Positions 42,228 through 57,615 of a DNA stretch of 64,000 bases are shown piece by piece. The notes beneath the pieces were generated by a model. The model made no database searches. It worked only from the letters and a program-made list of their open reading frames with translations, and was not told the DNA's origin. The position numbers and the translations under genes were made by a program. Origin of the DNA: Geobacter sp. FeAm09 (GTDB lineage: Bacteria; Desulfobacterota; Desulfuromonadia; Geobacterales; Pseudopelobacteraceae); assembly GCF_008330225.1 (NCBI RefSeq), contig NZ_CP042466.1:1126501-1190500 (forward strand). The letters are read 5' to 3'. The first letter of the stretch is position 1, and each line of letters begins with the position of its first letter.

Positions 42228-43429
42228 ATGAGGCTTATAAGTCTTGCAGCAATCCTGCCGACTCTTATCTGCGTGCCGGTACTCTCGCATGCAGTGGAGA
42301 TGAATATAACAAGTTCGACCCAGTACCTGTGGTATCGGGATTTTGTGGCAGACAAAACCCAAAACGACGTTGCGGAATACATGCGGCTCAACGGAACCAA
42401 GCTGGACAAGGATGGGAAGATCAGCTTTTCCGGCTACGGCAGGGTCACGAAACAGGTAACCAGCAGTGAGGACCTGCAGGGGAGGTTGTATTACCTGTAT
42501 CTGGACTACCGCGATGCCGTCAAGGACCATCTGGACCTGCGGGCCGGCAGGAGTTTCGTCAACTCCGCTGCGGTATCGGGAACCATGGATGGGCTCTCCG
42601 TCAACCTGAAAAACCTGGGCCCCTTCGGGGTCACCGCCTTTGGCGGCCGGGAAGCGATCTTTCAGGACAAGCAGGAGGTCGGCGGCGGCAATGCCATCAT
42701 GGGGGGAGCATCTACCTCGATACGGCAAAGAGCACCCACATCGAGGTCGGCTACGGCAACAAGTACCGGCACTCCCAGTTGGCCAGGGAGAGCGTCGGCC
42801 TCAAATTCTCGACGACGCCCGTGGACATGCTCAACATCTATGGGCAGGGGAAGTACGACACCATCGCCGAGCAGATCAACGAACTGCTGCTGGGCGTAAA
42901 GGTGGTGCCGCTTAGAAAGCTGAGCCTGAGGGTCGAGTATGACGAAAGCCGTCCCACCTTCGACCGGGACTCCATATACACCATCTTTGCCGTTGACCGG
43001 TACCGGGAGATCAGCGCCGCCGCCGAATACCAGTTTACGTATGACTACCGGCTCAACGCCTCCTACGCCAAGGAACGCTACGGAGAAGGCGCCGAGGCCG
43101 ATGTTTACGACATCGGCCTCACAACTCGCCCCCTGAAGAATCTCAACCTCAGTGTCAGTTACGAAAAGAGGAACGGCTATACCGGCCAGCTCAGCGGCCT
43201 GAGGATCAATGGCGGGTACGATATGGACAAGGCGGCGATTCAGGGCGGGATCGATTACGACGATTTTTCCCGGGCCGACTCCCGCAGCAGCACGGCGAAA
43301 AAATACTGGGCCGGCGTGACGTACCGCTACAACAAGATGGTCGGCATAACCACGAGGGCCGAATACGATGTCAATTATACGAGCGGCGACAGCTATCAGG
43401 GATTTGTCGCCTTTAACGTCAACTATTAG
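42228..43429 (+). pseudogene. Outer-membrane porin-like protein, one-base frameshift
   Basis: ATG 42228 follows AAAGGAGG. After a signal peptide (LSHAVE) the protein shows amphipathic barrel strands (KISFSGYGRVTKQV, GRLYYLYLDYRDAV, HLDLRAGRSFVNS). The frame breaks at G6 42701-42706 and continues with IYLDTAKSTHIEVGYGNKYR to the aromatic end FVAFNVNY. One extra G gives 400 aa, about 16 strands. It is directly followed by a heptaheme lipoprotein cytochrome, so the pair resembles a porin-cytochrome conduit. The break is probably an assembly error. Confidence 0.82.
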
Positions 43430-43446
43430 CTTCGTGGAGGAAGACC

Positions 43447-44085
43447 ATGCGACACACCGGATTTGTTAGGACAACGCTGCTCAGTACCACCTTTCTCCTC
43501 CTGGTCGCCTGCTTCGCATCCGCCAGGACCGACCACAAGGAGTACAAAAACAGCAAATTGAACGAATGCCAGGACTGCCATAGCGGTGCGGGCGACGTGA
43601 CCAACCATGGCGGGTACCGGGAGCACCGGATGCTGGCGGAACGGGCCGACACCAACTGCATCGACTGCCACCAGCAGTCGTTCTGTCTCGACTGTCACAG
43701 CGGCGGCAACATCGAGGCCTACAAGCAGAAAAGCCTGTCGCGCACGGGCGAGGCCATGCCCTCCACCCACGGCCCCGACTTTGTCGCCACCCATGCCCTG
43801 CAGGCCAAATCCCCCCAGACGTGCTACCGCTGCCACGATTCGAGCTTCTGTTCGGACTGCCATGGCAAGGTGAAGAACAAGGGGAGCATGAGCGTCAAGT
43901 CGCACTGGGCAGCGGGCAACACCCAGAAATATTTCCTGAACAGGAATTCGTCGGCGGCGGAGATCGCCGTACACGCCGCGGAAGCGCGGCGGGAGTTGCA
44001 ATCCTGCCAGGGGTGTCATCCCGATGCGGTCGTCTGTTCGCAATGCCACAACCTGAAGGCCCCGGGCGGCAAGGTGTTCAAATAG
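43447..44085 (+). CDS. Heptaheme c-type cytochrome, probable lipoprotein
   Basis: ATG 43447 follows TGGAGG. The 212-aa product has a signal ending LLVAC (lipobox-like) and seven CxxCH motifs (CQDCH, CIDCH, CLDCH, CYRCH, CSDCH, CQGCH, CSQCH). Further His residues can serve as distal ligands. It is 17 bases after the porin gene and upstream of the Fe-S/AOR pair. The likely role is electron transfer between the periplasmic enzyme and the outer-membrane barrel. Confidence 0.9.
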   Translation: MRHTGFVRTTLLSTTFLLLVACFASARTDHKEYKNSKLNECQDCHSGAGDVTNHGGYREHRMLAERADTNCIDCHQQSFCLDCHSGGNIEAYKQKSLSRTGEAMPSTHGPDFVATHALQAKSPQTCYRCHDSSFCSDCHGKVKNKGSMSVKSHWAAGNTQKYFLNRNSSAAEIAVHAAEARRELQSCQGCHPDAVVCSQCHNLKAPGGKVFK

Positions 44086-44243
44086 GCGCCGCCGCAGGCA
44101 ACGGTGCGGACAACGTCCAACCGTTTATGTATCGGGCCATGAGGGGCGGAAGCGGACGTTCCGCGTCCGATGCCTGGCCACCTGATCTCACGATGGAATG
44201 AACAGATATTAAGTACAACCAGGAAGTCGAAAGGAGACGGCAC

Positions 44244-45038
44244 ATGATCGAGATATTCAAAACAGTTGCTGGAGAAATGTCGCAGAACGCCTCAACGGAA
44301 GAGGTAACCGAACTTATCCGCAAACACATTTCCCGGCGGCAATTTCTCATAGGTACGAGCGCAGTCGGCATGGGCGTCGCCTCGCTCTGCATCTTCGGCT
44401 GCGGCAGCCACGGTTCGCCCTCGGCGCCGCGCCAGGTCTACGTGGCCAACGCCCTGGGGATGGTCGTTGCCGACCCGACCCTCTGCGTGACCTGCCGCCG
44501 CTGCGAAGCGGCGTGCGTCGGGTACAACAACGGCGATGCCACATCGACCCTGCAGCAGCCTACCATCGCCAACGTCAAGGTCAGCCGGAATATGTACTGG
44601 GGTGTGGATGGTGTGACGTCGAATGCCTACGAGGGGGAGGGCAACTACGGCAACTACCGCACCGTCCAGGACGTATGCCACCAATGCCCGCACCCGGTGC
44701 CATGCCAGTTGGCGTGTCCCCAGGGGGCTATCGAGGTCATCGACCCGGTCAACGCCAGGGTCGTGAACGTGGATAAATGCGTGGGGTGCGGCATCTGCGT
44801 CGCGGCCTGTCCCTGGGCGATGCCGGCCCTGAGCGGCGCGGTGAACGCCCTGAATTCCAAGTCGCACAAATGCACCCTGTGCAACGGCAACCCGGAATGC
44901 GTCCAGACGTGCCCCACCGGCGCCCTGACCTACACGGCGTGGGCCGATATGACCAAGACCGTACCGACGCGCCAGACCGTGCCCGCATCCATCCAACTGG
45001 CCGCGGATGTCGCCGGCACCTGCGTGCAGTGCCACTGA
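44244..45038 (+). CDS. Tat-exported four-cluster Fe-S protein (NrfC/YdhY/HybA-like)
   Basis: ATG 44244 follows GAAAGGAGA. The 264-aa protein has a twin-arginine signal (SRRQFLIGTSAVGMG) ending at FGC, perhaps a lipobox. Four Cys groups for [4Fe-4S] clusters follow: CVTCRRCEAAC, CHQCPHPVPCQLAC, CVGCGICVAAC and CTLCNGNPECVQTC. The C-terminus ends in CVQCH, a CxxCH motif at the last five residues, unusual for this family. Such proteins move electrons from a molybdo- or tungsto-enzyme. The gene is 45 bases upstream of the AOR gene. Confidence 0.92.
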   Translation: MIEIFKTVAGEMSQNASTEEVTELIRKHISRRQFLIGTSAVGMGVASLCIFGCGSHGSPSAPRQVYVANALGMVVADPTLCVTCRRCEAACVGYNNGDATSTLQQPTIANVKVSRNMYWGVDGVTSNAYEGEGNYGNYRTVQDVCHQCPHPVPCQLACPQGAIEVIDPVNARVVNVDKCVGCGICVAACPWAMPALSGAVNALNSKSHKCTLCNGNPECVQTCPTGALTYTAWADMTKTVPTRQTVPASIQLAADVAGTCVQCH

Positions 45039-45083
45039 TGCCCATAACACGAAGACACAACTATCATCATAAGGAGGTAGGAA

Positions 45084-47441
45084 ATGGCTGAATATGGTGG
45101 ATGGACTGGCAAGACCTTACGGGTGAATCTGACCACGGGCAGCATCTCCACGGAAGACACCCTGGCAAAATACAAGGACGTCATCGGCGGCGTGGGCCTG
45201 GGGAACAAGGTGCTGTGGAACGAGGTGCCCGCGGGCACGACAGCTTTCTCCCCCGAAAACCGGCTCGTCTTCGCCCAGGGGCCGCTGAGCGGCAGCGGCG
45301 GGCCGCTGACCGGACGCTGCAGCATCATCTCCCTCTTGCCCTACGCCATGAACGACCTGCCGGGTGCCGGGCACATGGGAGGACACTTCGGGCCGGAGAT
45401 CAAGTATGCCGGCTATGATGCCATCATCATCCACGGCAAGGCGACCACGCCGGTATGGCTCCGGATCGAGAACGACAAGGTATCCCTCGAGGACGCAACC
45501 GCCATGTGGGGCAACGGCATCTACTACGCCTACGAGCAGGTCGCCCTCAAGATGGGCTCCGACGCGCATGTGGCGGCAATCGGCCAGATTGGGGAGAATC
45601 AGTTCCGCCTCTCCAACATCCTGTGCGACAAGTCCCACTCCGCCGGCGGAGGGCTGGGGGCCGTCATGGGCTCCAAGAACCTCAAGGCCATCGGCATCAA
45701 GGGCACCGGATCGGTGAAGATCGCCACCGACAAGAAATCGTGGAAGGCTCTCAACAACTACATCCTGAGCCTGCTCGGCTCCAACAACAACCACGTGGTA
45801 CCGAGCACGCAACAGCCATGGGCGGAATACTACGACTCCGGCTCCCGCTGGACGTCCGCCCCGGGCATCTTCTGGGGCGCAGCCCAGCCGCCGGTGGAGA
45901 CCGGCTACTGCACGGACTTCGAGTCCACCACGTCCGACTGCCCCAGCCCCAAAAACAAATTGGGCCGGCGCTGCCACAAGGGATACAAGGACTACGGGAC
46001 CGTGGGGGCGAACCACACGGTCAAGATGAACGGCTGCCATCACTGCCCGATCCGCTGCCACATCTCCACGGACTTCCCCGAGCTGGAGCAGTACGGGGCG
46101 TTCCGCTACAACGAGAACACCTGCACCGGGTACCGGGCCATGTCCGACCTGATGACGAGGACGCTCTCCAGCGATGCGAACAATGCCCTGCGCTGCGACA
46201 ACATGAGCACCTACGTTTCCCACGATATCGGGTTCTGGACCGACTACGGCGCCTACACCAGCACCTACACCTGGGCCAAGACCCACGTGATGACCGCGGC
46301 CGAGTGCACCTACCTGGGGCTCCCCGCATCATATGTGGGGAAAACTCCCTTCCAGAACCGTCTCCCGGCCGCGGAGCTGACCATCCTGAGCGGCAACTCC
46401 ACCGGTGCCAAGCCCTACACCGCGGGTACCCCCTGGGCCAAGAGCGATGCCGGCGACCCGACGGCGATCCAGGACCTGGCGGCCCTCTTCATCGCCAAGA
46501 ACAACAAGGTCCCCACCTTCACCAACGTGGTGTGCAACGGCACGTATCGCTGGGGGGAGCAGTGGCCCGAGATCGACTTCATCTCGGAACACGGCAAGTC
46601 CCTGACCCACTTCAAGTTCGGCATGGAGAAGCATCACGGCGTGGAGAGCATGGGGCAGGTAGGGTGCCTGATCAACCTGTTTTACAACCGTGACCCCATG
46701 AACCACTCCCACCAGAACCAGACCGTGGGACCGCCGGCCGCCCTGCGGGAGACGATCATGAAGGAGCTCTTTTCCTCGTCCACGTCGGTGAGCATCTTCA
46801 ACGACCCGGCCGGAAGCGACGTGGGTATCGTGAACTCGGCGAATACCTCCGGCTATTCTGCCGCGACCAAGGGGAAGGCCGCCTTCGCGGCGGCGTGCCT
46901 GGTGGACGTGGAGCTCAAGAACTCCCTGATCGAGTGCGACTGGACCTTCCCCCTCTGGATGTCGCCGCTCAAGAGCAGGAGCTACCGCGGCGACGCCACG
47001 GTTTCCGCCCAGTCGTACACCGCCGTGACCGGCGAGGCCATGACGTGGCCGCAACTGCAGAAGATCGGCCTGAGGATCTTCACCCTCTTCAGGTGTCTCA
47101 CGGCCCGCTACATGGACTACTACGTCAAGCAGGCCGACGCCACCAAGGCGGTCAACATGCGTACCGATCACGACGTCATGGCCCCTTGGCACTTCGAAAC
47201 CGCCAACTCGCCCGTGAACGTGGCAACGGGTAACACCGACTGCTACCCGGCGTCGAACGTGGCGTTCACCGGAACCACGCAGCTGATGACCGAGGCTGAC
47301 ATGAACGTGGCCCGGGATTACATCTACGACATGTTCGGCTGGGACAAGACCACCGGCATGCCGACCTCGGCGACCCTGACGAGCCTTGGCCTCGACTACA
47401 TCAAGGACGACGCGGCCGTGGCAAAGCTGATCGTGGCGTAG
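45084..47441 (+). CDS. Aldehyde:ferredoxin oxidoreductase family (W/Mo-bis-pterin) enzyme
   Basis: ATG 45084 follows AAGGAGG. The 785-aa protein has AOR hallmarks: IGGVGLGNKVLW, GPLSGSGGPLTGRCS, MGGHFGPEIKYAGYDAIII, GENQFRLSNILCDKSHSAGGGLGAVMGSKNLKAI, and the cluster ligands C318-C321-C325 (CHHCPIRC) with C528 as probable fourth. It has no signal peptide. Export by hitchhiking on the Tat Fe-S partner is possible. It is longer than typical AORs (about 600-700 aa), with extra Ser/Thr/Gly-rich inserts. The substrate is unknown; an aldehyde or another two-electron organic or inorganic substrate is possible. Confidence 0.92.
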   Translation: MAEYGGWTGKTLRVNLTTGSISTEDTLAKYKDVIGGVGLGNKVLWNEVPAGTTAFSPENRLVFAQGPLSGSGGPLTGRCSIISLLPYAMNDLPGAGHMGGHFGPEIKYAGYDAIIIHGKATTPVWLRIENDKVSLEDATAMWGNGIYYAYEQVALKMGSDAHVAAIGQIGENQFRLSNILCDKSHSAGGGLGAVMGSKNLKAIGIKGTGSVKIATDKKSWKALNNYILSLLGSNNNHVVPSTQQPWAEYYDSGSRWTSAPGIFWGAAQPPVETGYCTDFESTTSDCPSPKNKLGRRCHKGYKDYGTVGANHTVKMNGCHHCPIRCHISTDFPELEQYGAFRYNENTCTGYRAMSDLMTRTLSSDANNALRCDNMSTYVSHDIGFWTDYGAYTSTYTWAKTHVMTAAECTYLGLPASYVGKTPFQNRLPAAELTILSGNSTGAKPYTAGTPWAKSDAGDPTAIQDLAALFIAKNNKVPTFTNVVCNGTYRWGEQWPEIDFISEHGKSLTHFKFGMEKHHGVESMGQVGCLINLFYNRDPMNHSHQNQTVGPPAALRETIMKELFSSSTSVSIFNDPAGSDVGIVNSANTSGYSAATKGKAAFAAACLVDVELKNSLIECDWTFPLWMSPLKSRSYRGDATVSAQSYTAVTGEAMTWPQLQKIGLRIFTLFRCLTARYMDYYVKQADATKAVNMRTDHDVMAPWHFETANSPVNVATGNTDCYPASNVAFTGTTQLMTEADMNVARDYIYDMFGWDKTTGMPTSATLTSLGLDYIKDDAAVAKLIVA

Positions 47442-47448
47442 CAAAAAC

Positions 47449-47605: not shown

Positions 47606-48562
47606 ATGCAGGAAGAAGAAGCGACAGCCGAGCCGACTGAGAGCGACCGCGCCACCGAGGCGGAGGAGCGGGCCGTGGCATGCGGGGGGGATGAAACCGG
47701 GAAAATGAATGTGGAGTTCCTGAACGATGCGGCCCTTGCCGCGGAGTTGCGGGAGAAAACCGAGGAGATCAAAACCAGGATTGCTGAGATGGTGCGGGCT
47801 CATTCACAGCACGCCGCCCTGACCCTGGACGAGGACATCGTCGCCCTCGACGATTACTTGCGCTACGGCAGAATAGAACTTGGCGCCGTTCTGGCCGAGA
47901 TGGCCACCGATGAACGCTACCAGGACATCAAGGCCATAACGACCGCCACGGGGCTGGTGTTCGTTTACTCTGACACCCACGTGGAAGCGGACGCGGCCGC
48001 CGCCAAAAGCGTGGTGGAAGAAGCAAAATACATGCTGGCGGGCGCCATCAGAAACGACTCGTGCAACCATGCCAGGCTTACGCCTGCCGGCGACATCCAC
48101 GCCATGGCGCCCGATACGGACCCCGCGGTCATCGACATCATTCTGCAAGGTCTTCCGACGGAGCCGCGCTATGCCGACATCAAGACGGTCACGGCGGCCA
48201 ACGGTGAGGTGTTTTACCACTCGAACCGCCATCTGGCGGACAATTATGCCGCCACGTTGCTGCTCTCCATGGCCGGAGACAACTGCGCAACCATTGCAGA
48301 AGCGGTGCGGGAGGAATCCCGGGTCTACCAGAGAACGACCAATACCTGCACCTTTCTCAACCACAGCCTGTACGGCATCCCCTACGGTGACCTGGAGAAC
48401 GCCCTTGCCGCTACGCTGCAGAGCCCGGCGTACTCGGATATCAAAAGAATGGCCCATCCGGCCACGGGGGGCGTTCATCTCTATTGCGACCGTTACCTCG
48501 ACGAGGAGCGGGCATGGGCCATCATGGATTGGGATGAGGTGGGGCGGGACAACAATCCCTGA
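47606..48562 (+). CDS. Unrecognised three-repeat protein downstream of AOR
   Basis: ATG 47606 follows TTGGAGG. The 318-aa soluble protein has no signal peptide. After an acidic N-terminus it contains three units that each end with a similar block: [48 protein letters not shown] and [25 protein letters not shown] (shortened: Y-x-DIK-x5-6-G-x-V/H-x2-Y-x2-R/T-H/Y-L/V). Each block is preceded by a helical L-x3-L segment. I do not recognise the domain. Its position suggests a role in AOR maturation or substrate handling. Confidence 0.72.
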
Positions 48563-48591
48563 GGCCCGGGCGATATCGGGGGAGAACAGGT

Positions 48592-49269
48592 ATGACGATA
48601 CGCTTCGGCCTATTTCGTGGTGTACCGGTGGTTGCCCTGACGTTCTGCCTCCTGCTGACTGTCGCTTGCGGAACCGGGGGCCAGGGGGCGTCCTCGACGG
48701 AAGCCACACCAGCCACAACAACGACCCCGGAGGCGCCTGCTGCGCCCGCGTCTCCGGCAACGGCGCCGGACGATACCACCGCCGCGGAAGTCCTGAACCC
48801 GGACGACCTGGCCCGGCTCCTGGCGACCGGTTCATGCCCCGGCTGCGCCCTCCGCGGGGCGGACCTCCCGCTCCATGACCTGGTAGATGCTGATCTGACT
48901 GGGGCTGAGCTGGCGGGGGCCAACCTGTCCGGGGCGAATCTGGCCGGCGCCTACCTGGGCGGGGTGGACCTGACCGGAGCGAACCTGACCGGCGCCAATC
49001 TCTCCGGGGCGTTTCTGGAACACGGGAACCTGGCCGGGGCGAATCTGACCCAAGCCGATCTGACCGGGGCCGATCTGACGACCTGGGTCGATCTCAGCGG
49101 AGCGATCCTGAGTGGGGCCGACCTATCCGGAGCCGACCTCTCCGCCGGTACGAAGTACCTCTCCTACGCCAATCTGACCGGGGCGGTGCTCGATTCCACA
49201 CTGTTGAACGGCACGATCTGGATAGACGGCAGGGTGTGCGCCGAGGGCTCCATCGAGGTGTGCCGATAA
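48592..49269 (+). CDS. Pentapeptide-repeat lipoprotein
   Basis: ATG 48592 follows AACAGGT. The 225-aa product has a lipoprotein-like signal (LLTVAC, C26), a Pro/Ala/Thr-rich linker and, from about residue 80, more than 20 A(D/N)LxG-type pentapeptide repeats that should form a right-handed quadrilateral helix. No enzymatic motif is seen. It probably acts as a rigid surface scaffold. It is co-oriented with the AOR cluster. Confidence 0.85.
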
Positions 49270-49351: not shown

Positions 49352-49855
49352 ATGGCAAAGGCAAAAGTGGGCGACAAGGTTCGGGTGCACTACAAGGGAA
49401 CGCTGGATGACGGTCTCATCTTCGATTACACGGGGGAGTTCGGGCATGTCATCTGCGCGCCCATGGAACTCGTCATCGGCCGGGAGGGGGAGGACGACCT
49501 GCCGCCCAAGTTCCACGAGGCGCTCATCGGCATGGAGCCGGGAGAACGGGTGACGGTCAGGATCCCGTGCGAAGACGCCTATGGCGAGCATTCCGAGGAG
49601 AAGGTATTCGAGATGCCGCGCAGCGAGTTGGCCCCGGAAGAGGAGATGTGCGAGGATTGGCGCTACCCCAACAACAAAACCATACCTCCCTTTGACCCGA
49701 GAAAGGGTGAGCGGCTGGAAATTTGCCTGCCGGACGGAACCTACATACCGGCCATCCTGACCAAGATCACTGAAAGCACGTACACCCTGGACGCCAACCA
49801 CCCCTGGGCCGGCAAGGACCTTACCTACGACATCAAACTGGTGGAGATCGTCTGA
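49352..49855 (+). CDS. FKBP-type peptidyl-prolyl isomerase (SlyD-like)
   Basis: ATG 49352 follows GAAAGGAAA. The 167-aa protein begins VGDKVRVHYKGTLDDGLIFDYT, has the FKBP core (ELVIGREG..., HEALIGMEPGERVTVRIP, EDAYGE) and an inserted domain before the final strand block ITESTYTLDANHPWAGKDL, as in SlyD/FkpB-type chaperones. There is no signal, so it is cytosolic. Such chaperones help fold Tat and metalloenzyme substrates, which fits the location between AOR and fdhD. Confidence 0.9.
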   Translation: MAKAKVGDKVRVHYKGTLDDGLIFDYTGEFGHVICAPMELVIGREGEDDLPPKFHEALIGMEPGERVTVRIPCEDAYGEHSEEKVFEMPRSELAPEEEMCEDWRYPNNKTIPPFDPRKGERLEICLPDGTYIPAILTKITESTYTLDANHPWAGKDLTYDIKLVEIV

Positions 49856-49927
49856 CGGGGCGGGCCAAGTGCCGCAGACCCCGGGCATCATCCGGAACGG
49901 GCCGGATATTCCAACGAGGTGGCCATC

Positions 49928-50758
49928 ATGGACAATACGACTCAATGCACCGTTACAGTCTACGATCACCGCTGCAACGCCAGGGCAAACTCGGAGCGCT
50001 CGGTTGCCGTGGAGAGCGCGCTTGTAATCGGCGTGAACGCAGCAACGGACTACACCATCATGCGGACGCCCGGCCATGACCGGGAGTTGGCCGCCGGTTT
50101 CCTTCTGACGGAAGGCATCATCGACGACGTGCATGAAATCCTGATGCTCAGGCAATGCCCGGAAACGCCCCACGCCATCGCGGTGCAGACGTCGAACGCC
50201 TCCGCCGCTCCGGCAAGCCGGAACCTGGTGGTGAATTCGTCATGCGGGCTGTGCGGCAGGGCGGACATGGATGCGCTGCTGGAAACGCTCGGCCAGGCGG
50301 GGCATGGCCTCAGGGTTCCCTATTCGGTCATCTACGATATTCCCAAGCGGGTCATGCCGGCCCAGTCCCTGTTCAAGGCCGCCGGCGCCACACACGCGGC
50401 TGCGCTGTTCGACGCGGCCGGCGACATATTCGTGGTCCGGGAGGACGTGGGGCGCCACAACGCCATGGACAAGGTGATCGGTGCGGCGCTCCTGCGGGGC
50501 AAGCCGACCGCGGACATGGGGGTTTTCCTTTCGGGCCGGGTGAGCCTGGAACTGGTGGTGAAAGCGGCCCGCAGCGGCATATCCGTCATGGTGTCGGTCA
50601 GCGCGCCGACCGATGTGGCGGTGACGATGGCGAACAGGCTGGGCATCACCCTGACCTGTTTTGCGCGCGAGACCGGTTTTACGGTGTATGCGCACCCCGA
50701 GCGGATCGCCTTTGCCGGGGCCGCCGGAGAGGCGCCCGCCGCTTATGCCTACGGGTAA
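49928..50758 (+). CDS. fdhD: Formate dehydrogenase accessory sulfurtransferase FdhD
   Basis: ATG 49928 follows CGAGGTGG. The 276-aa protein has FdhD motifs: TPGHDRELAAGFLLTEGII, the sulfur-relay loop SSCGLCG, and VREDVGRHNAMDKVIG with SGRVSLELVVKAARSG. FdhD passes sulfur from IscS to the bis-MGD cofactor of formate dehydrogenases. No formate dehydrogenase gene is visible in this window; the nearby pterin enzyme is the AOR-type protein, so the target is open. Confidence 0.95.
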   Translation: MDNTTQCTVTVYDHRCNARANSERSVAVESALVIGVNAATDYTIMRTPGHDRELAAGFLLTEGIIDDVHEILMLRQCPETPHAIAVQTSNASAAPASRNLVVNSSCGLCGRADMDALLETLGQAGHGLRVPYSVIYDIPKRVMPAQSLFKAAGATHAAALFDAAGDIFVVREDVGRHNAMDKVIGAALLRGKPTADMGVFLSGRVSLELVVKAARSGISVMVSVSAPTDVAVTMANRLGITLTCFARETGFTVYAHPERIAFAGAAGEAPAAYAYG

Positions 50759-50821: not shown

Positions 50822-52090
50822 GTGATCAGCATCGAGGAAGCACAAACGTCCATATTGAGCGGCGCCGCCCCGCTGGGGCTGGAGGAGGTCCCCCTGCTCC
50901 AGGGGCTGAACCGGGTGACGCCGGCGGACCACATTGCGCCGTGGGACATCCCGTTGACGGACAATTCGGCCATGGACGGATATGCCTTCTCCTCGGCCCG
51001 GTTTTCCGGCCGGCCGTTGCAGGTTACCGGTTTTCTGCCGGCCGGAGGGAGCCGTGCCATCCCGCTCCCCCCGGGGGAGGCGATCAGGATCATGACCGGC
51101 GCCCCGATCCCACCGGGCTGCGACACGGTCGTGCCGTTCGAGGATGCGGCCGTGCACGGCGACCTGATCAGTCTGTCCCCCGGGATCAAAAAAGGCGCCC
51201 ATGTGCGCAGGCGGGGGGAGGACATCCGCTGCGGCGACGTGGTCATCTCCGCCGGTTCCTGCCTTAGACCCCAGGAACTGGGCATGCTGGCGGCCATGGG
51301 AACCACCGTGGTGACGGTGTACCGGAAAGCGCGGGTCGCCATTCTCGCCACGGGCGACGAACTCATGGAGCCGGGCGCCACCCCGCTTCCGGGAAGGGTC
51401 GTCAACAGCAACAGCTACACCCTCGCCGCGCTGGTGGGCGAGGCGGGCGGGGAGGCGACCATGCTCGGCATCGCCCCCGATCTCCCGGGGGAGACCTGCG
51501 CGAAGATCAGGGCCGGCCTGCGTGCCGCCGACATGGTGCTCACGACCGGCGGCGCCTCGGTAGGCGACCACGACTTCGTCAAGGCGGCAATCGAAAGGCT
51601 GGGGGGAACCATCACGTTTTGGAAGGTCAACGTGAAACCGGGCAAGCCTTTGGCCTTTGCAACGCTGGAGGGGAAGCCGGTTTTTGCCCTGCCGGGGAAC
51701 CCGGCCGCCGCCATGGTCTCCTTTGAGCTGTTTGTCCGGCCGTATCTCCTCAAGGCCATGGGGCACCAACGAATCTTCCGGCCGAAGGCCCGGGCGGTCA
51801 TGCAGGAACCGGTGGCCAACGACTGCGGACGGCCGCACCTGGTCAGGGGGATTGTGGCGCGACACAACAGCGGCTACGTCGTGTCCACCACCGGCAATCA
51901 AAGCTCCGGCCGGCTCTCGTCCCTGACCCGGGGAAACGCCCTGATCCACCTGGCTCCGGAATCGTCGTATTCCGCCGGCGACACGGTGGAGGTCCTGCTC
52001 CTGGACCAGAGGTTCGAGATGGGGGAAACCGTGGAGCACGCCGCCGCCCTGTCCCCACGGCCACGCGGAATTTTTGCTGCCGTGCGTTGA
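50822..52090 (+). CDS. moeA: Molybdopterin molybdenumtransferase MoeA
   Basis: GTG 50822 follows AGAGGAG. The 422-aa protein shows the MoeA core: DNSAMDGYAF, GEAIRIMTGAPIPPG, VRRRGEDI, ATGDEL, TTGGASVGDHDF and ALPGNPAAA with the C-terminal beta domain. MoeA inserts molybdate or tungstate into adenylylated molybdopterin. It lies next to fdhD and upstream of moaA, forming a partial cofactor set. Confidence 0.96.
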   Translation: MISIEEAQTSILSGAAPLGLEEVPLLQGLNRVTPADHIAPWDIPLTDNSAMDGYAFSSARFSGRPLQVTGFLPAGGSRAIPLPPGEAIRIMTGAPIPPGCDTVVPFEDAAVHGDLISLSPGIKKGAHVRRRGEDIRCGDVVISAGSCLRPQELGMLAAMGTTVVTVYRKARVAILATGDELMEPGATPLPGRVVNSNSYTLAALVGEAGGEATMLGIAPDLPGETCAKIRAGLRAADMVLTTGGASVGDHDFVKAAIERLGGTITFWKVNVKPGKPLAFATLEGKPVFALPGNPAAAMVSFELFVRPYLLKAMGHQRIFRPKARAVMQEPVANDCGRPHLVRGIVARHNSGYVVSTTGNQSSGRLSSLTRGNALIHLAPESSYSAGDTVEVLLLDQRFEMGETVEHAAALSPRPRGIFAAVR

Positions 52091-52138
52091 GACGCCGCCG
52101 GCCCGGGAACAAAACGAAGAGTTGAAGGAGTGCCGATC

Positions 52139-52621
52139 GTGACCAAACTAACCCCCTGCTGTTTCTGCAACGTGGATGAGTCCGAGGCCGTGCTGTCCAA
52201 TGACCACGCAATCGCCATAGCGGACGGTTTTCCCATCACGCCCGGCCATTGCCTGATCGTCCCCCGGCGGCATATCTCCTCATTCTTCGAGGCAACCCCG
52301 GAGGAGCAGCGGGCGCTGTTCGACCTGCTGGCCGAAGTGCGGCAGCTCCTGCTCCGTCCACAGCCCCTCTCTACCCCCGGCGGCCCGGTGGCGGTTTCGC
52401 CCCCCGACGGCTTCAACATCGGCGTCAACGACGGCCCGGCGGCCGGCCAGACCGTCATGCACCTGCATATCCACCTGATCCCCCGCTATCTGGGGGATAC
52501 GGAAGACCCGCGCGGCGGCGTGCGCTGGATCATGCCGGTCAAGGCCCCCTATTGGAAAAAGATGAACGGCACGGGGAGTCAGGCCGGCGAGCGGGCGGCT
52601 TTGCTTGCGGTGGCGTTGTGA
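52139..52621 (+). CDS. HIT-family nucleotide hydrolase/transferase
   Basis: GTG 52139 is placed 9 bases after AAGGAG; a GTG at 52130 is too close to it. The 160-aa protein has an N-terminal CCFC pair, DGFPITPGHCLIVPRRHI and the HIT motif HLHIHLIPR. HIT proteins hydrolyse dinucleotides or AMP-lysine-type conjugates. The link to the cofactor genes may only be positional. Confidence 0.88.
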   Translation: MTKLTPCCFCNVDESEAVLSNDHAIAIADGFPITPGHCLIVPRRHISSFFEATPEEQRALFDLLAEVRQLLLRPQPLSTPGGPVAVSPPDGFNIGVNDGPAAGQTVMHLHIHLIPRYLGDTEDPRGGVRWIMPVKAPYWKKMNGTGSQAGERAALLAVAL

Positions 52622-52640
52622 GGATGCGGCGGGGGGCTTT

Positions 52641-53093
52641 ATGGAACTGAAAGACGACGTACTGGCGGCCTGCAAAGGCATCGTTGCCGCCAAGGTGCGA
52701 AATGCCAGGGAACTGAGGCTGGCACGGCTGGAGAAGGCCGTCGGGGAATCGGTGCACATACTCGACACGTGCAACGAACTCACCCGCAACAGCGATTATA
52801 GCTACCGCTGCGCCCCTATCGACGGCGGATATGAAGTCACCTACTCCGGAGAGAGCATAAGCGGCACCATACGGATCGTGGACAGCGACCGCGACACCCA
52901 CGAGACAAAGCCCAAGGATGGGAACGTGCTGCTGTCCGTGCTGTGCAGGGCGCACTCGTGTCAGACGCGCTCCTTTTACAACGGGGCGATCCCCGAGAAG
53001 GACATCATAGGGTTTATCAGGTACGCGACGCGGGGCCCGACGCTCAACGACCGTTTGCGCAGGATGGCCGGACGTTATCAGGGCGATTTTTAG
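52641..53093 (+). CDS. Soluble protein of unknown function
   Basis: The 150-aa product starts at ATG 52641 behind a G-rich sequence. It has no signal or membrane segment. The N-terminal half is helical (VLAACKGIVAAKVRNARELRLARLEKA), the centre beta-rich (YEVTYSGESISGTIRIVD) and the end basic. Four Cys are present. I recognise no family. Confidence 0.6.
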   Translation: MELKDDVLAACKGIVAAKVRNARELRLARLEKAVGESVHILDTCNELTRNSDYSYRCAPIDGGYEVTYSGESISGTIRIVDSDRDTHETKPKDGNVLLSVLCRAHSCQTRSFYNGAIPEKDIIGFIRYATRGPTLNDRLRRMAGRYQGDF

Positions 53094-53185
53094 GGCCCGC
53101 GGCGAGACAGGCCGACGGCGGGACCGCCGGAGAAAATGCAACGGAACGGGCAGGCACGGCCTGCACAAACCACAAGGACGGGACA

Positions 53186-55549
53186 ATGCCCCAGAACCAG
53201 GCAGCATCGAAAGAAACCGCCCCTGCCGCACAGAGCGCGGCCGATCATTTCAGCGGGGCCGTCGAACATCATCGGGCCGGCCGCCTGGACGAGGCCGAAA
53301 GGCTCTATCGCCAGGCCCTGTCCCTGGATGCCGGCCATGCCGACAGCCTCAACATGCTCGGCATCATCGCCCACCAAAGGGGCGACCTGGACGGCGCCAT
53401 CGGGATGATCGGCCAAGCGATCTCCCTGAACGGGGAAACGGCCGAATTTCATTCCAATCTCGGCATCGTCCTCAGCCACCAGGGGCGGCTCGAAGAAGCC
53501 GTCGCCAGCTACGAACGTGCCCTCGCCATGAAACCTGAGTACCCGGAGGCGCTGTACAACCTGGGCAATGCCCTGGTGGGCCAGGGGCGGCTCGGCGAGG
53601 CCGTTGCCGCCTACGAGCGGGCCATCGCCGTCCGGCCCGAGTTTCCCCAAGCCCTCTCCAACCTGGGGAACGCACTCCAGAGTCAGGGCAGGCTGGGCGA
53701 GGCCATTGTCAGCTACGAACAGGCGCTGGCCATCTGGCCGAACTTCCCGGAGGCCCTCTCCAACCTGGGCAACGCCCTCATGGACAACGGGAGCTTCGAG
53801 GAGGCGGCCGTGCACTACCAGCATGCCATCGCCATCCGGCCGGACTACCCGGAGGCCTCCTGCAACCTGGGCATCGCCTTGCTCACGCAAGGTGAGACGG
53901 AGCAGGCGCTGCTCATGGCCCTGTATGCGCTGAGGATCGAGGAGGGCCCTGCCAGCCGTCTGCTGTTCTGCGACTGCCTTAAGGCTGCCGGCCCGGAGCT
54001 GTACCGCTCCGGCCAGCTCGAACTGGTCTACGGCCTGGCCGTGCGTGCCGTCACCGAAGCCTGGGTCCGGCCGAAGGACCTGGCGTGCCCCTGCCTGTCC
54101 CTGGCGCTGGCGCGGAACGAGGCGCTGCAACGCCTCATGTCCCGGGCGCTCGAGGTGTGGCCCGGGCGCTTTGCCGCTGCCGTGGAACCGGAGACCTGGG
54201 CAGCGCTCGCCGGCGACCCCCTGCTGCTCTGCCTGCTGAAAGCCACGGCGATCCCGCAGGCGGAGTGCGAACGGCTCCTGGCCTGCCTGCGCTCCGCCAT
54301 GCTGGCGGCGGTCGAAGCGGCGCCAGCCGGGGAGGGGGACCTTGTGGCCTGCTTCAGCGCCCTGGCCCAGCACTGCTTCATCACCGAATACGTGTTCGCG
54401 CTGCCCCCCGAGGAAAACGAACGGGCCGGGCGCCTGCGGGACGAGGTGGCGGCGGCGCTGGCGGCGGAAAGGGAGGTTGCCCCGCTGGCGCTTATGGCCG
54501 TTGCCGCCTATTTCCCGCTGCACACCCTTCCCCGGGCCGGGACGCTTTTGTGCGGCGAGTGGCCTGCCGAGGTCCGTGAGGTGCTCCGGCAGCAGATCGA
54601 AGAGCCCGGAGAAGAGGCGCGCCTGCGGGACGCCATCCCCCGGCTGACGCCGATAGAAGAACCCCTCTCCGCGGCGGTGCGGGCGCAGTACGAGCAGAAC
54701 CCCTATCCGCGCTGGGTCCGGGAACCGGCATCTTCGGAGATGTCCTCCCTGGACGCCTGCCTGCACCGGGAGTTCCCCCTGGCCCCCTTCGACAACCAGG
54801 AGCAGAACGGGGAGATGTACATCCTCGTTGCCGGCTGCGGCACGGGGCAGCACCCGATCCAGACGGCCCGCCGTTTTCCCCGGTCGCGGATCCTGGCCAT
54901 CGACCTGAGCCTCTCGAGCCTGGCCTATGCGGCGCGGAAGAGCCGGGAAGCGGGCATAACGAACATCGAATACGCCCAGGCGGACATGATGCACCTGGGA
55001 GATCTCGGGCGGAGCTTCGACGTGATCGAGGCGGTGGGGAGCCTGATGTGCCTGGAATCCCCCCTTGACGGCTGGAAGCTCCTGCTTTCGCTGCTGCGCC
55101 CCGGCGGTTTCATGCGCATCGGGCTGTACAGCGAACTGGCGCGTGAGTGCGTGGTGGCCGCCCGGGGGCATATCGCTGCCCAGGGTTACCAGGGTTCTCA
55201 GGCGGAGGACATCCGCCGCTGCCGGCAGGAGATCATGGCGCAGGGAGCGGACGGCCCCCTGGCGCGCCTTCTGTCGCTGGGCGACTTCTATACCACGAGC
55301 GAATGCCGCGACCTCCTGTTCCACGTACAGGAAGCGCGGCACACGATCCCGCAGATCAAGGAGAACCTGATGGAGCTTGGGCTCACCTTCATCGGCTTTT
55401 CCCTTGAGCCCGGGGTGGTAAGGAAGTACCGGTCCCGTTTCCCTGAAGACTACTCCCGGACGAGCCTGGACTTCTGGGATCTGTTCGAGCACGAACACCC
55501 CGAAGTCTTTACCGGGCTGTACCAGTTCTGGGTCCAGAAAAACCGCTGA
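53186..55549 (+). CDS. TPR-repeat protein with SAM-dependent methyltransferase domain
   Basis: ATG 53186 gives 787 aa; the open frame upstream lacks features. Residues ~20-260 are about seven TPR units (GRLDEAERLYRQAL..., EYPEALYNLGNALVGQGRL...). A helical middle follows. A class I methyltransferase domain has motif I VAGCGTGQ, IDLSLSSLAYA, ADMMHLGDL and LLRPGG. From residue ~244 to the end the sequence is identical to the second copy at 57733-60507. The methylated target is unknown; TPR suggests a protein partner. Confidence 0.88.
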   Translation: MPQNQAASKETAPAAQSAADHFSGAVEHHRAGRLDEAERLYRQALSLDAGHADSLNMLGIIAHQRGDLDGAIGMIGQAISLNGETAEFHSNLGIVLSHQGRLEEAVASYERALAMKPEYPEALYNLGNALVGQGRLGEAVAAYERAIAVRPEFPQALSNLGNALQSQGRLGEAIVSYEQALAIWPNFPEALSNLGNALMDNGSFEEAAVHYQHAIAIRPDYPEASCNLGIALLTQGETEQALLMALYALRIEEGPASRLLFCDCLKAAGPELYRSGQLELVYGLAVRAVTEAWVRPKDLACPCLSLALARNEALQRLMSRALEVWPGRFAAAVEPETWAALAGDPLLLCLLKATAIPQAECERLLACLRSAMLAAVEAAPAGEGDLVACFSALAQHCFITEYVFALPPEENERAGRLRDEVAAALAAEREVAPLALMAVAAYFPLHTLPRAGTLLCGEWPAEVREVLRQQIEEPGEEARLRDAIPRLTPIEEPLSAAVRAQYEQNPYPRWVREPASSEMSSLDACLHREFPLAPFDNQEQNGEMYILVAGCGTGQHPIQTARRFPRSRILAIDLSLSSLAYAARKSREAGITNIEYAQADMMHLGDLGRSFDVIEAVGSLMCLESPLDGWKLLLSLLRPGGFMRIGLYSELARECVVAARGHIAAQGYQGSQAEDIRRCRQEIMAQGADGPLARLLSLGDFYTTSECRDLLFHVQEARHTIPQIKENLMELGLTFIGFSLEPGVVRKYRSRFPEDYSRTSLDFWDLFEHEHPEVFTGLYQFWVQKNR

Positions 55550-55553
55550 AAGG
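53917..55553 (+). repeat. Direct repeat, first copy (1,637 bp)
   Basis: This segment appears identical to 58875-60511 (offset 4,958) and covers the methyltransferase halves of both TPR genes plus a few bases past the stop. The repeat brackets tatA-moaA-MOSC. Confidence 0.88.
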
Positions 55554-55574
55554 CGGCACGTGAGGAGGTTTTAT

Positions 55575-55814
55575 ATGTTCGGATTTGGCGTACCCGAGAT
55601 GGTGATCCTTCTTGCCATAGTCCTGGTGGTTTTCGGTGCGGGAAAACTGCCGGAAGTGGCGGGAGCCATGGGGAAAAGCATTCTCAATTTCAAGAAAGCG
55701 GCACAGGGCGCGGACGAAAGGGTGATTGACGCCCCCGCCGCGGCACCCGTCCGCAACGGGAACGAGGCGGCGGTGGAAATAGATCTCGCCGCCCCCCGGA
55801 AGGACGAGGCCTGA
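55575..55814 (+). CDS. tatA: Tat translocase subunit TatA/TatE-like
   Basis: ATG 55575 follows GAGGAGG. The 79-aa protein has the TatA layout: one N-terminal helix (PEMVILLAIVLVVFGAGKLPE) with the FG hinge, an amphipathic helix and an acidic tail. It would help export folded Tat substrates, such as the Fe-S protein at 44244. tatC is not in the window. Confidence 0.92.
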   Translation: MFGFGVPEMVILLAIVLVVFGAGKLPEVAGAMGKSILNFKKAAQGADERVIDAPAAAPVRNGNEAAVEIDLAAPRKDEA

Positions 55815-56088
55815 ACGCTCCATGGTTCGTGCCGTGCGGCGACGGTGCACGCGGCTTGAACGGTGCATTCGCATGGCGGGGAGGTTCGGGGCTTTGCGCG
55901 CCGGGCTGCCGCCATGTACCGGAAACACCGCTGGGACAGGTTGTTCCCCGACGGTGCCATGAACGCCCCGCGGCGTTTCGCCTCCCTCTCGACGCGGGGC
56001 GTTCACCCACAACTCAAACAGTCAGCCCATGGCCGGCCGCGTGCCGGCCCATGCCGCAGCCTCCCCGGAGAGGCGCAAGGAACAAGCG
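55815..56088 (+). other. Gap upstream of moaA
   Basis: I see no gene in this stretch. Together with the small frame at 56089-56199 it forms a 375-base gap between tatA and moaA. GC-rich palindromic stretches (GGCGTTTCGCC, GCCGGCC) occur but no clear promoter or terminator. Confidence 0.4.
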
Positions 56089-56199
56089 ATGAAACAGGAT
56101 AGGAAGACGAAGACAGTGGCACCCGCAGCGCGAGCCATGGAGGCCTTCCCCCGCATGCCCGCCGCACGGCGCGCCCAGGTAGCTGCACCATGCGCCTGA
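56089..56199 (+). CDS. Possible 36-aa leader peptide overlapping moaA start
   Basis: ATG 56089 behind CAAGGAACA opens MKQDRKTKTVAPAARA..., basic and Ala-rich, and ends 10 bases inside moaA. The overlap suggests translational coupling to moaA, but chance cannot be excluded. Confidence 0.28.
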   Translation: MKQDRKTKTVAPAARAMEAFPRMPAARRAQVAAPCA

Positions 56200-57170
56200 T
56201 CGACTCCCAGGGGAGAAACATAAACTACATGCGCCTGGCGGTGACCGACCGCTGCAACCTGCGCTGCGTGTATTGCATGCCCAAGGCCGGCATCGCCAAA
56301 AAAGGGCACGACGCGATCCTCTCCTACGAGGAGCTGCTGTTCGTCGCGGAGACCGCCGTCGGCCTGGGCATCGAGAAAATCCGCATCACCGGCGGCGAAC
56401 CGCTGGTGAGGGCCGGCATCGTCCCGTTCCTCGACCGTCTGGCCGAGATCCCGGGACTGCGGCACCTGGTCCTGACGACCAACGGCCTCGCCTTGGAGGA
56501 TATGGCCGGCGACCTCTACCGGAGCGGCGTCCAGCGCCTGAACGTCAGCCTCGACTCCCTCGATGGGAAAACCTTTGCCGGGATCACCCGTGGCGGTGAT
56601 CTGAAAAAGGTGCTTTCCGGGCTCGATGCCGCCGAGCAGGCCGGTTTTCCGCCCCCCAAAATCAACATGGTCGTCATGCGCGGGGTGAACGATGCCGAAA
56701 TACCCGATTTCGTGGAAATGGCCAGGACCCGCGGCACCACCATCCGTTTCATAGAGTACATGCCGGTGGGGTGGGAGGACGGCTGGCAACGCTACTGCGT
56801 TCCCGGCAGCGAAATCCTGGAGCGGATCAGAGCCCGGTACACCCTGGTGGAAGTGCACAAGGGGCCATCCGCCGGGCCCTCGCGGGACTTCCGCATCCCG
56901 GGGTCGCGGGGCGCCGTCGGCATCATCACCGCCGTATCGGAACACTTCTGCAACGCCTGCAACCGGATCCGGGTCACTTCCACCGGCCAGGCCCGGGGAT
57001 GCCTCTTTGCCGGCGAGGCCGCCGACCTGGTCCCCTGGCTGCGCCCCGCCGACCGCTCCGGCCTGGCAGGGGCGCTTTCGGAAATCGTTTCCCGCAAACC
57101 GGTTCGCCACAGAATTTCGGCGCCGGGGCATTCCCACGAACGCTTTACCATGTCCCAGATCGGAGGCTGA
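56190..57170 (+). CDS. moaA: GTP 3',8-cyclase MoaA
   Basis: ATG 56190 gives a 326-aa radical SAM enzyme with the CxxxCxxC motif CNLRCVYC, the GGEP motif (TGGEPLVR) and the C-terminal second cluster (HFCNACNR and GC). It ends in GG. It catalyses the first step of molybdopterin synthesis, GTP to 3',8-cH2GTP. moaC, moaD and moaE are not seen nearby. Confidence 0.96.
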   Translation: MRLIDSQGRNINYMRLAVTDRCNLRCVYCMPKAGIAKKGHDAILSYEELLFVAETAVGLGIEKIRITGGEPLVRAGIVPFLDRLAEIPGLRHLVLTTNGLALEDMAGDLYRSGVQRLNVSLDSLDGKTFAGITRGGDLKKVLSGLDAAEQAGFPPPKINMVVMRGVNDAEIPDFVEMARTRGTTIRFIEYMPVGWEDGWQRYCVPGSEILERIRARYTLVEVHKGPSAGPSRDFRIPGSRGAVGIITAVSEHFCNACNRIRVTSTGQARGCLFAGEAADLVPWLRPADRSGLAGALSEIVSRKPVRHRISAPGHSHERFTMSQIGG

Positions 57171-57171
57171 A

Positions 57172-57615
57172 ATGGCGCACATCCTCGCCGTCTGCATCAG
57201 CAAAAACAAGGGGGAGCGCAAGAAACCGGTCCCCGTGGCGGAACTGCGCGAAGACCACGGCATGGTCGGCGATGCCCATGCCGGCGAGTGGCATCGCCAA
57301 GTGAGCCTTTTGGCCAGGGAAAGCATCGACAAGATGCGCCGGCTGGGGCTGGAGGTGGATGCCGGGGATTTTGCCGAAAATATCACCACCACCGGTATCG
57401 ATCTGGTTTCGCTGCCCATCGGCACGCGCCTCAAGGTCGGCCCGGCCCTTTTGGAGGTGACCCAGATCGGCAAGGAGTGCCACAACCGCTGTGCCATCTT
57501 TTACCAGGCCGGCGATTGCGTCATGCCCAAAGAGGGGATCTTCGCCAAGGTTATCGATGCGGGGCTGGTCTGCCCGGAGGATGAGATACGGATCGTCCCG
57601 CCACGAGCCGTCTGA
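57172..57615 (+). CDS. MOSC-domain protein
   Basis: ATG 57172 starts two bases after the moaA stop. The 147-aa protein has the MOSC pattern: VCISKNKGERKKPV, GMVGDAHAGEWHRQVSLL, FAENITTTGIDL and the conserved Cys in GKECHNRCAIF. MOSC domains carry sulfur on Cys and act on the Mo cofactor. The coupling to moaA supports a cofactor role. Confidence 0.9.
   Translation: MAHILAVCISKNKGERKKPVPVAELREDHGMVGDAHAGEWHRQVSLLARESIDKMRRLGLEVDAGDFAENITTTGIDLVSLPIGTRLKVGPALLEVTQIGKECHNRCAIFYQAGDCVMPKEGIFAKVIDAGLVCPEDEIRIVPPRAV

What the first reader, a model, noticed from the sequence alone, without database searches (positions are those of the whole stretch)
42228..57615. Porin-cytochrome-FeS-AOR cluster with its own W/Mo cofactor and Tat genes
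The sequence shows, on one strand, a barrel protein, a heptaheme lipoprotein-type cytochrome, a Tat-signal four-cluster Fe-S protein and an AOR-family enzyme. These are followed by an FKBP chaperone, fdhD, moeA, tatA, moaA and a MOSC protein. Known AORs are mostly cytosolic and ferredoxin-linked. AOR-plus-Fe-S pairs (YdhV/YdhY-like) exist, but a pair tied to an outer-membrane porin and heptaheme cytochrome, with cofactor insertion and sulfuration genes nearby, would be an extracellular-facing tungsto/molybdoenzyme respiratory system. Substrate and direction of electron flow are unknown.
Basis: partly seen in the sequence, partly recalled or inferred. Interest (0 to 1): 0.82.

Follow-up and report, generated by a model that had tools for sequence, protein, structure and literature searches.

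The report
Periplasmic tungsten/molybdenum enzyme beside outer-membrane cytochrome
A Geobacter-like bacterium carries a YdhV-type tungsten or molybdenum enzyme, of a group whose job is unknown, right next to genes for an outer-membrane electron wire, which suggests but does not prove that the enzyme trades electrons with the cell surface.

Summary
The genes are real, with corrections. The AOR (45084-47441) is a full-length YdhV homologue, so a Class V/clade-41 tungsten-oxidoreductase: a group exported by a Tat-signal Fe-S subunit, function unknown. The barrel and heptaheme cytochrome are an OmbB/OmaB-type porin-cytochrome pair without an OmcB-type gene; the cytochrome lacks the eighth heme, and the barrel ORF is frameshifted at a G6 run (probably an assembly error). 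One other genome among 277 of the class has a close AOR (61%); there FeS-AOR-YdhW-FKBP-fdhD are syntenic, without the pair. None of 57 further clade-41 loci shows the pair. So enzyme plus maturation genes is a conserved module; enzyme plus porin is seen once. Two findings favour a cytochrome link: Fe-S subunits on one side of the clade-41 tree, the window's included, end in a c-heme motif CxxCH (18 of 59), and in Shewanella the same enzyme pair lies beside a divergent UndA-type cytochrome gene in 14 of 18 loci. Most likely a periplasm-facing or outer-membrane respiratory enzyme wired to a reduced porin-cytochrome conduit, built like Shewanella DmsEFAB. Substrate, direction and co-function are unproven.

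The parts
42228..43429 (+). OmbB-type outer-membrane barrel (porin-like), split in two frames at G6 run 42701-42706
   Evidence: blastp of both parts to single ORFs of about 410 aa in relatives, alignment in two frames, Porin_4 E=9.4e-4, below cut-off
43447..44085 (+). OmaB-type multiheme cytochrome c: 7 CxxCH, LVAC lipobox, lacks the C-terminal eighth heme of its relatives
   Evidence: (up to 52% identity)
44244..45038 (+). YdhY-like Tat Fe-S subunit (S): 16 Cys in four cluster motifs, loose lipobox IFGC, C-terminal CVQCH
   Evidence: (PRK09898 E=5.7e-37, below cut-off)
45084..47441 (+). YdhV-like AOR (L), 785 aa, clade-41/Class V; five Cys invariant in 37 of 37 rows; seven inserts shared with G580
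47606..48562 (+). YdhW-like protein (W), 318 aa, longer than YdhW; probable maturation or accessory factor
   Evidence: blastp E=9e-14 to E. coli YdhW, NCBIfam PRK09947 E=6.3e-34, below cut-off
48592..49269 (+). pentapeptide-repeat lipoprotein; no homologue seen in the G580 locus, membership doubtful
   Evidence: Pfam Pentapeptide E=2.3e-43
49352..49855 (+). FKBP-type prolyl isomerase, 167 aa; syntenic in G580
   Evidence: FKBP_C E=1e-12; 49% identity in G580
49919..50758 (+). fdhD, one of two copies in this genome
   Evidence: homologue in the same position in G580 at 31%
50822..52090 (+). moeA (metal insertion into pterin)
52130..52621 (+). HIT-family protein; membership doubtful
55560..55814 (+). 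tatA
   Evidence: (TatA_B_E E=2.9e-17)
56190..57170 (+). moaA, one of three copies in this genome
57172..57615 (+). MOSC protein, like the MOSC half of MoaC/MOSC fusions
   Evidence: NF011069 E=9.1e-61

Best explanation
This is a Class V (clade 41, YdhV-type) tungsten/molybdenum oxidoreductase module, S-L-W-FKBP-fdhD (with moeA, tatA, moaA and MOSC close by), that has come to sit behind an OmbB/OmaB-type outer-membrane pair. L (AOR) binds bis-pyranopterin and a 4Fe-4S cluster in the cytoplasm; W, FKBP, FdhD and MoeA help to mature it (inferred); S, with four 4Fe-4S clusters, carries it out by the Tat pathway (signal shown, export inferred). The C-terminal CxxCH of S binds one c-type heme (motif and its conservation shown, heme inferred) that exchanges electrons with multiheme cytochromes, here most likely the OmaB-type heptaheme cytochrome in its OmbB-type barrel. 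S-L thus takes the place of the missing OmcB-type partner, on the plan of DmsEFAB of Shewanella (outer-membrane protein, cytochrome, Fe-S subunit, Mo enzyme). I think a terminal reductase of an unknown substrate slightly more likely than an oxidase (about 55:45). Stepwise likelihoods: identity of S-L-W 0.95; periplasm-facing 0.9; heme on S 0.7; coupling to the OmbB/OmaB-type pair 0.5; complex at or outside the outer membrane 0.3.
For: S, L, W are homologues of YdhY, YdhV, YdhW in the usual order of clade-41 loci. S-L-W-FKBP-fdhD synteny in G580. AOR model (pLDDT 84.6) matches solved AORs, Z 31-41. C-terminal CxxCH beyond the 16 cluster Cys in 16 of 57 S proteins of L094-L173, plus window and G580; on a 38-row L tree (37 rows labelled) the trait needs one change. 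fdhD within 1.5 kb of the AOR in 8 of 57 loci. Barrel and cytochrome are OmbB/OmaB-type: the pair stands in 12 of 12 regions fetched around strong cytochrome hits (one of them this genome's own paralogue), in 11 of 12 followed by an 8-12-heme ORF. Barrel-cytochrome gap 17 bp; cytochrome-S gap 158 bp with no terminator-like site in it. Independent case: Shewanella S-L beside a divergent 11-heme UndA-family gene in 14 of 18 loci, S with an LTGC lipobox in 18 of 18. Precedent for conduits capped by a Mo enzyme: PMC6148476 and PMC11302344 (passages).
Against: No second genome shows the porin-cytochrome pair with this enzyme: G580 lacks it in 11.8 kb upstream and 0 of 57 clade-41 loci show it. Only one genome was available for a close comparison. 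The cytochrome lacks the C-terminal eighth heme and the barrel frame is broken, which also fits a decaying conduit. The 158-bp gap before S leaves room for a separate promoter. The lipobox of S is not canonical (IFGC), and G580 has none. The model of S was too poor to place the tail (pLDDT 54). Most tail-bearing S proteins have no multiheme gene nearby: such genes lie within 6 kb in 7 of 57 loci, 5 of them Shewanella, whose S has no tail. Four of 18 Shewanella loci lack the UndA-type gene.
Confidence: 0.45

Rival explanations
1. The enzyme module and the porin-cytochrome pair are neighbours by accident in an accessory region. S-L works as a soluble or inner-membrane-linked periplasmic enzyme through small periplasmic cytochromes, and the OmbB/OmaB-type pair is an unrelated or decaying conduit.
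For: No synteny of the two parts in G580 or in 57 clade-41 loci. Backbone synteny with a same-genus genome stops at window 37300, so the cluster lies in a segment not shared with it. The pair has lost one heme and the OmcB-type partner, and the barrel is frameshifted.
Against: Same strand and tight order; seven heme sites intact at up to 52% identity, unlike decay; a histidine kinase in the window is split at homopolymers too, with shifts in the same direction; Shewanella shows an independent, repeated link of the same enzyme to an outer-membrane-type cytochrome.
Confidence: 0.4
2. Electrons run the other way: S-L oxidises an aldehyde-like or other low-potential substrate in the periplasm and passes electrons through the outer-membrane pair to an external acceptor, bypassing quinones.
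For: Aldehyde/acid couples lie near -500 mV (PMC13328260, passage), so AORs usually oxidise aldehydes; Geobacter-type cells respire external acceptors.
Against: A clade-41 enzyme showed no activity on 46 aldehydes (PMC13328260 section 12; only L was purified there); the nearest architecture, DmsEFAB, is a reductase.
Confidence: 0.35
3. The CxxCH tail of S is not a heme site but a metal or proofreading motif.
For: No heme data; a single CxxCH at the end of an Fe-S protein is unusual; the S model does not resolve the tail.
Against: CxxCH is kept in the 18 tails while the two middle residues and the rest of the tail vary, and the four clusters already have their 16 Cys; in four loci (L051, L100, L103, L106) the tail runs on into a hydrophobic, helix-like stretch, and a cytochrome b ORF lies between S and L.
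Confidence: 0.25

Closest known systems
E. coli YdhYVWXUT and other Class V (clade 41) tungsten-oxidoreductases (PMC13328260)
   Same: Homologous S, L and W in the same order; Tat-type signal on S; no function known
   Different: No YdhX, YdhU or YdhT follows directly; S has a C-terminal CxxCH that E. coli YdhY lacks; L is 785 aa with seven inserts; FKBP and a second fdhD follow; a porin-cytochrome pair precedes
Cetobacterium somerae CsWOR41 locus (L034)
   Same: AOR, small YdhW-like protein, fdhD, tatA, moeA together
   Different: No cytochromes annotated, tatC present, tungstate-type transporter genes upstream (named TupABC in PMC13328260), no CxxCH tail
OmbB-OmaB-OmcB porin-cytochrome (Pcc) conduits of Geobacter (PMC4245776; PMC6148476 uses the names OmaB and OmbB the other way round)
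   Same: Barrel and multiheme cytochrome match the barrel/8-heme pairs of such clusters in relatives, in the same order
   Different: 7 rather than 8 hemes, lipobox on the cytochrome, no OmcB-type gene; an Fe-S/AOR pair follows
Shewanella DmsEFABGH (PMC11302344)
   Same: Plan: outer-membrane protein, cytochrome, Fe-S subunit, Mo enzyme, maturation factors
   Different: AOR in place of a DMSO-reductase-family enzyme; other barrel and cytochrome families; surface location not shown
Shewanella clade-41 S-L beside UndA-type gene (seen here)
   Same: Same enzyme family next to an outer-membrane-type cytochrome gene
   Different: Cytochrome is an 11-heme UndA-family protein on the other strand (strict lipobox pattern in 9 of 14); no porin-cytochrome pair seen; S without heme tail

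Membership tests
Class V / clade-41 (YdhV-type) tungsten-oxidoreductase | L subunit falls in the YdhV clade | tested here: met
   Full-length match to YdhV, 36% over 99%; best NCBIfam model is the YdhV one, though below its cut-off. On its own fully supported branch with G580 in a tree of clade-41-like rows without outgroup; clade 41 was not rebuilt from the paper's dataset
Class V / clade-41 (YdhV-type) tungsten-oxidoreductase | S subunit with Tat signal and/or membrane helix | tested here: met
   SRRQFLIG motif and hydrophobic stretch (Pfam TAT_signal only E=0.051, below cut-off); homologous to YdhY
Class V / clade-41 (YdhV-type) tungsten-oxidoreductase | At least one further subunit | tested here: inconclusive
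   YdhW-like gene follows; whether it is a subunit or a chaperone is unknown
Class V / clade-41 (YdhV-type) tungsten-oxidoreductase | Contains W or Mo on bis-pyranopterin | not testable with these tools
   Needs purified protein; the fold agrees with AORs
Porin-cytochrome (Pcc) conduit, OmbB-OmaB-OmcB type | Porin-like outer-membrane protein | tested here: inconclusive
   Homologous over its length to barrels of Pcc-like clusters, but the ORF is frameshifted; strand count not predicted
Porin-cytochrome (Pcc) conduit, OmbB-OmaB-OmcB type | Periplasmic multiheme c-cytochrome (5-14 hemes in the published set) | tested here: met
   7 CxxCH, homologous to the 8-heme protein of such clusters; range from PMC4245776
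Porin-cytochrome (Pcc) conduit, OmbB-OmaB-OmcB type | Outer-membrane lipoprotein cytochrome (absent in some published clusters) | tested here: not met
   No such gene follows; an Fe-S gene does. So not filed as a complete Pcc cluster; it may still work like a two-component one
Dms-type capped conduit (DmsEFAB) | DMSO-reductase-family catalytic subunit | tested here: not met
   Catalytic subunit is AOR family. Analogy only
Dms-type capped conduit (DmsEFAB) | Enzyme on the outside of the outer membrane | not testable with these tools
   Only a loose lipobox on S

The most novel reading that the evidence does not exclude
Class V AORs are outer-membrane or surface respiratory enzymes in cytochrome-rich bacteria: in this Geobacterales genome an S-L complex with a built-in heme on S replaces the OmcB-type cap of an OmbB/OmaB-type conduit, and in Shewanella the same enzyme, lipidated on S, works with an UndA-type surface cytochrome. 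That would be an AOR-family counterpart of DmsEFAB and a first physiological setting for clade 41.
Probability: 0.3. Interest if true: 0.82.

Novelty: new variant of a known kind. Interest (0 to 1): 0.6.

Why it matters
Class V enzymes make up over 10% of the family according to PMC13328260, E. coli included, and that paper gives none a known activity or role. A conserved CxxCH tail on the Fe-S subunit of part of the group and a repeated neighbourhood with outer-membrane-type cytochromes offer a concrete, testable electron partner in genera (Geobacter relatives, Shewanella) that can be grown and in which electrode and knockout assays exist. [quoted passage not shown]

Tried and rejected
Dedicated inner-membrane partner: the c-cytochrome/cytochrome b/15-heme set at 61001-63998 was considered as the quinone link. 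Its cytochrome b has a 97% copy at the left window edge and 83-88% homologues in all five same-genus genomes searched, in which the AOR search found no match at E 1e-30; so it is a core locus that is duplicated here, not a part of the module.

A viral scan with the AOR found no relative. Promoter and terminator scans gave numbers near chance, as did a sigma-54 pattern (22 matches, 31 expected). The structure of S was unusable. A PDB sequence search with the heptaheme cytochrome gave nothing useful. Searches for neighbours in the 57 loci used blastp at 1e-8 with the window's proteins; distant fdhD or barrel genes may be missed, and only 34 of 57 loci have more than 6 kb on both sides, 44 more than 5 kb upstream. 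Copy numbers of moeA and tatA were not tested. The identification of the pair with OmbB/OmaB rests on gene order, heme counts and lipoprotein partner in relatives; no named Geobacter reference sequence was compared. The pentapeptide, HIT and TPR-methyltransferase genes were not studied further.

Papers: PMC13328260 abstract, passages and section 12 seen; PMC4245776 passages and section 7; PMC6148476 and PMC11302344 passages; all others only in search listings. Nothing was found by the searches 'Shewanella + UndA + aldehyde ferredoxin oxidoreductase', 'aldehyde ferredoxin oxidoreductase + outer membrane cytochrome + extracellular electron transfer' and 'tungsten + aldehyde + iron-sulfur + CXXCH + Tat'; the library holds open-licence PMC papers only, so this is weak evidence of novelty. 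PMC13328260 does mention cytochrome-containing subunits in gammaproteobacterial Class V loci, so the Shewanella link may be partly on record in its supplement, which I did not read. Nitrate/FNR control of E. coli ydh is recalled and was not used as evidence.

Full report
What is there. The window lies in a 4.1 Mb single-contig genome at C1:1126501-1190500. On the + strand, in order: a barrel gene in two frames (42228-43429), a seven-CxxCH cytochrome with an LVAC lipobox (43447-44085), a Tat-signal Fe-S protein (44244-45038), an AOR of 785 aa (45084-47441), a YdhW-like protein (47606-48562), a pentapeptide lipoprotein (48592-49269), FKBP (49352-49855), fdhD (49919-50758), moeA (50822-52090), HIT (52130-52621), an unknown ORF (52605-53093), a TPR-methyltransferase ORF (52943-55549), tatA (55560-55814), moaA (56190-57170) and MOSC (57172-57615).

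The enzyme. The AOR matches E. coli YdhV over its whole length (36% identity, 99% covered), its best NCBIfam model is the YdhV one, and its model (pLDDT 84.6) aligns with solved AORs at Z 31-41, rmsd 2.7-3.3 over 553-581 residues. Five cysteines are invariant in 37 of 37 rows, and seven inserts of 3 to 19 residues are found in at most 3 of the 36 other rows but are shared with G580. The Fe-S protein and the gene after the AOR are YdhY- and YdhW-like. These are the S, L and W parts of what PMC13328260 calls Class V, clade 41: Tat-linked or membrane-linked, function unknown, no activity on 46 aldehydes for the one tested, of which only L was purified.

Where else it occurs. In the 56 other genomes of the relatives search, five of them of the same genus, there are only partial matches (best 156 bits against 1851 for itself). 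In the class, 277 genomes, one other genome (G580, same order, another family) has a full-length one at 61%. In G580 the order is FeS (59%), AOR (59%), YdhW-like (53%), FKBP (49%), fdhD homologue (31%), and no barrel or multiheme ORF lies in the 11.8 kb upstream. G580 has no OmaB-like gene of comparable similarity elsewhere (best 45 bits, against 174-177 in two other genomes of its family). In the phylum, 395 genomes, 15 including the window's own pass E 1e-60. In none of the 57 did blastp at 1e-8 find the barrel, the heptaheme cytochrome or FKBP; 44 of them hold more than 5 kb upstream. Eight have fdhD within 1.5 kb of the AOR. Backbone synteny with same-genus G005 stops at window 37300 and does not resume in the stretches compared (own genome to 139.5 kb in window numbering against 18.5 kb more of G005), so the cluster lies in a segment that this relative does not share there.

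The porin and cytochrome. Homologues of the cytochrome are found in 45 of 57 genomes (own included) at E 1e-6, the strong ones (E below 1e-30) at 38-52% identity. I fetched 12 regions around strong hits, one of them this genome's own paralogue. In all 12 a barrel gene homologous to the window's stands directly before the cytochrome gene, and in 11 of 12 an ORF with 8-12 CxxCH follows. Order, heme counts and the lipoprotein-like starts of that third gene agree with OmbB-OmaB-OmcB as described in PMC4245776 (PMC6148476 uses the first two names the other way round). The window's cytochrome aligns through hemes 1-7 and ends before the eighth, and the third gene is missing. Published Pcc clusters without the outer cytochrome exist, with larger periplasmic cytochromes; here it is smaller. 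The barrel frame breaks at a G6 run. A histidine kinase at 37.7-40.6 kb is also split, in homopolymer-rich stretches, and all three shifts go the same way, which I read as undercalled homopolymers in the assembly rather than decay; this is not proven.

A heme tail on the Fe-S subunit. In the window S ends in CVQCH, beyond the 16 cysteines of its four clusters. Of 57 S proteins from L094-L173, 16 have such a C-terminal CxxCH (one S, L119, is partial); with window and G580 it is 18 of 59. It also stands in all 12 S proteins of L050-L061, some of which are the same contigs as loci in the 57. In L051, L100, L103 and L106 the tail runs on into a hydrophobic stretch, and a cytochrome b ORF lies between S and L. 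The tail is absent from the enterobacterial, clostridial, fusobacterial and Shewanella S proteins seen. On a tree of 38 L proteins, 37 labelled, the label needs one change (branch support 91, quick method, no outgroup). This points to one gain or loss of a c-type heme and to electron exchange with cytochromes or cytochrome b.

An independent case. In Shewanella S-L lies beside a divergent 11-heme gene of the OmcA/UndA family (PDB UndA 3ucp E=5.7e-99; Pfam OmcA-like_N). Of 97 Shewanella genomes searched, 19 have the AOR at E 1e-80. I fetched 18 of these (the nineteenth, G660, lies on a contig that ends too near the gene): 14 of 18 have the UndA-like gene adjacent, 4 have none in the 4.3-4.7 kb upstream of S, and S has an LTGC lipobox in 18 of 18; a strict lipobox pattern was met by 9 of the 14 UndA-like proteins. 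L identity to the query ranges from 59 to 100%, and the neighbour is found among the most distant ones too, so it is old.

Cofactor genes. fdhD is present twice in this genome and at most once in the five same-genus genomes; moaA three times, as in one same-genus genome, once or not at all in the other four. With the fdhD link in 8 of 57 loci, in Cetobacterium, in L060/L061 and in G580, FdhD is probably a maturation factor of part of clade 41, as PMC13328260 suggests for Cetobacterium. moeA, tatA, moaA and MOSC are not next to the enzyme in G580, so for them 'its own' is open.

How it may work. Shown: genes, homologies, Tat motif, heme motifs, syntenies. Inferred: cytoplasmic maturation of L, export with S, heme on S, electron exchange with the OmaB-type cytochrome, and the enzyme as cap of the conduit. 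Reductases built this way exist (DmsEFAB), and PMC6148476 itself suggests looking for non-cytochrome parts such as Fe-S clusters as the exposed lipoprotein. Against it stands that this exact combination is seen once, with a conduit that looks reduced. I give coupling even odds.

Verdict. The firm part is a new, long-form member of a known, uncharacterised family with a CxxCH-tailed Fe-S subunit. The porin link is a single case, made more interesting by the Shewanella neighbourhood.

Noticed in passing
1-1088 and 61562-62649: Inverted repeat, 95% over 1088 nt: a second copy of a core cytochrome c/cytochrome b/multiheme locus at the right; the other copy lies at the left edge of the window and beyond.
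   Followed up: partly
52943-55549 and 57622-60507: Two TPR-methyltransferase ORFs, identical in their last 543 residues and 1633 nt, on either side of tatA-moaA-MOSC; a recent duplication or gene conversion.
   Followed up: partly
37728-40584: Sensor histidine kinase split over three frames in homopolymer-rich stretches, followed by a LuxR-type response regulator (40649-41293); possible regulator of the cluster and a sign of assembly indels.
   Followed up: partly
62996-63895: Four 225-nt direct repeats in a cytochrome-c7-like gene with about 15 CxxCH.
   Followed up: no
L180 (G000:C1:1189001-1206000), window numbering 75432-79500: Beyond the window: an ORF that looks like another barrel, followed by a Tat-signal ORF that looks like a molybdopterin enzyme (by eye, not searched).
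   Followed up: no
L060 and L061: Desulfobacterota clade-41 loci with fdhD-S-L-W followed by a further Tat Fe-S protein, a 399-aa protein and a 16-CxxCH cytochrome; the plan recalls Hmc complexes (name recalled, not tested).
   Followed up: partly
L051, L100, L103 and L106: S subunits whose CxxCH tail runs on into a hydrophobic stretch; a cytochrome b ORF lies between S and L.
   Followed up: partly
41300-42227: About 900 bases without a clear gene before the barrel gene, GC 48% against 64% for the window.
   Followed up: no
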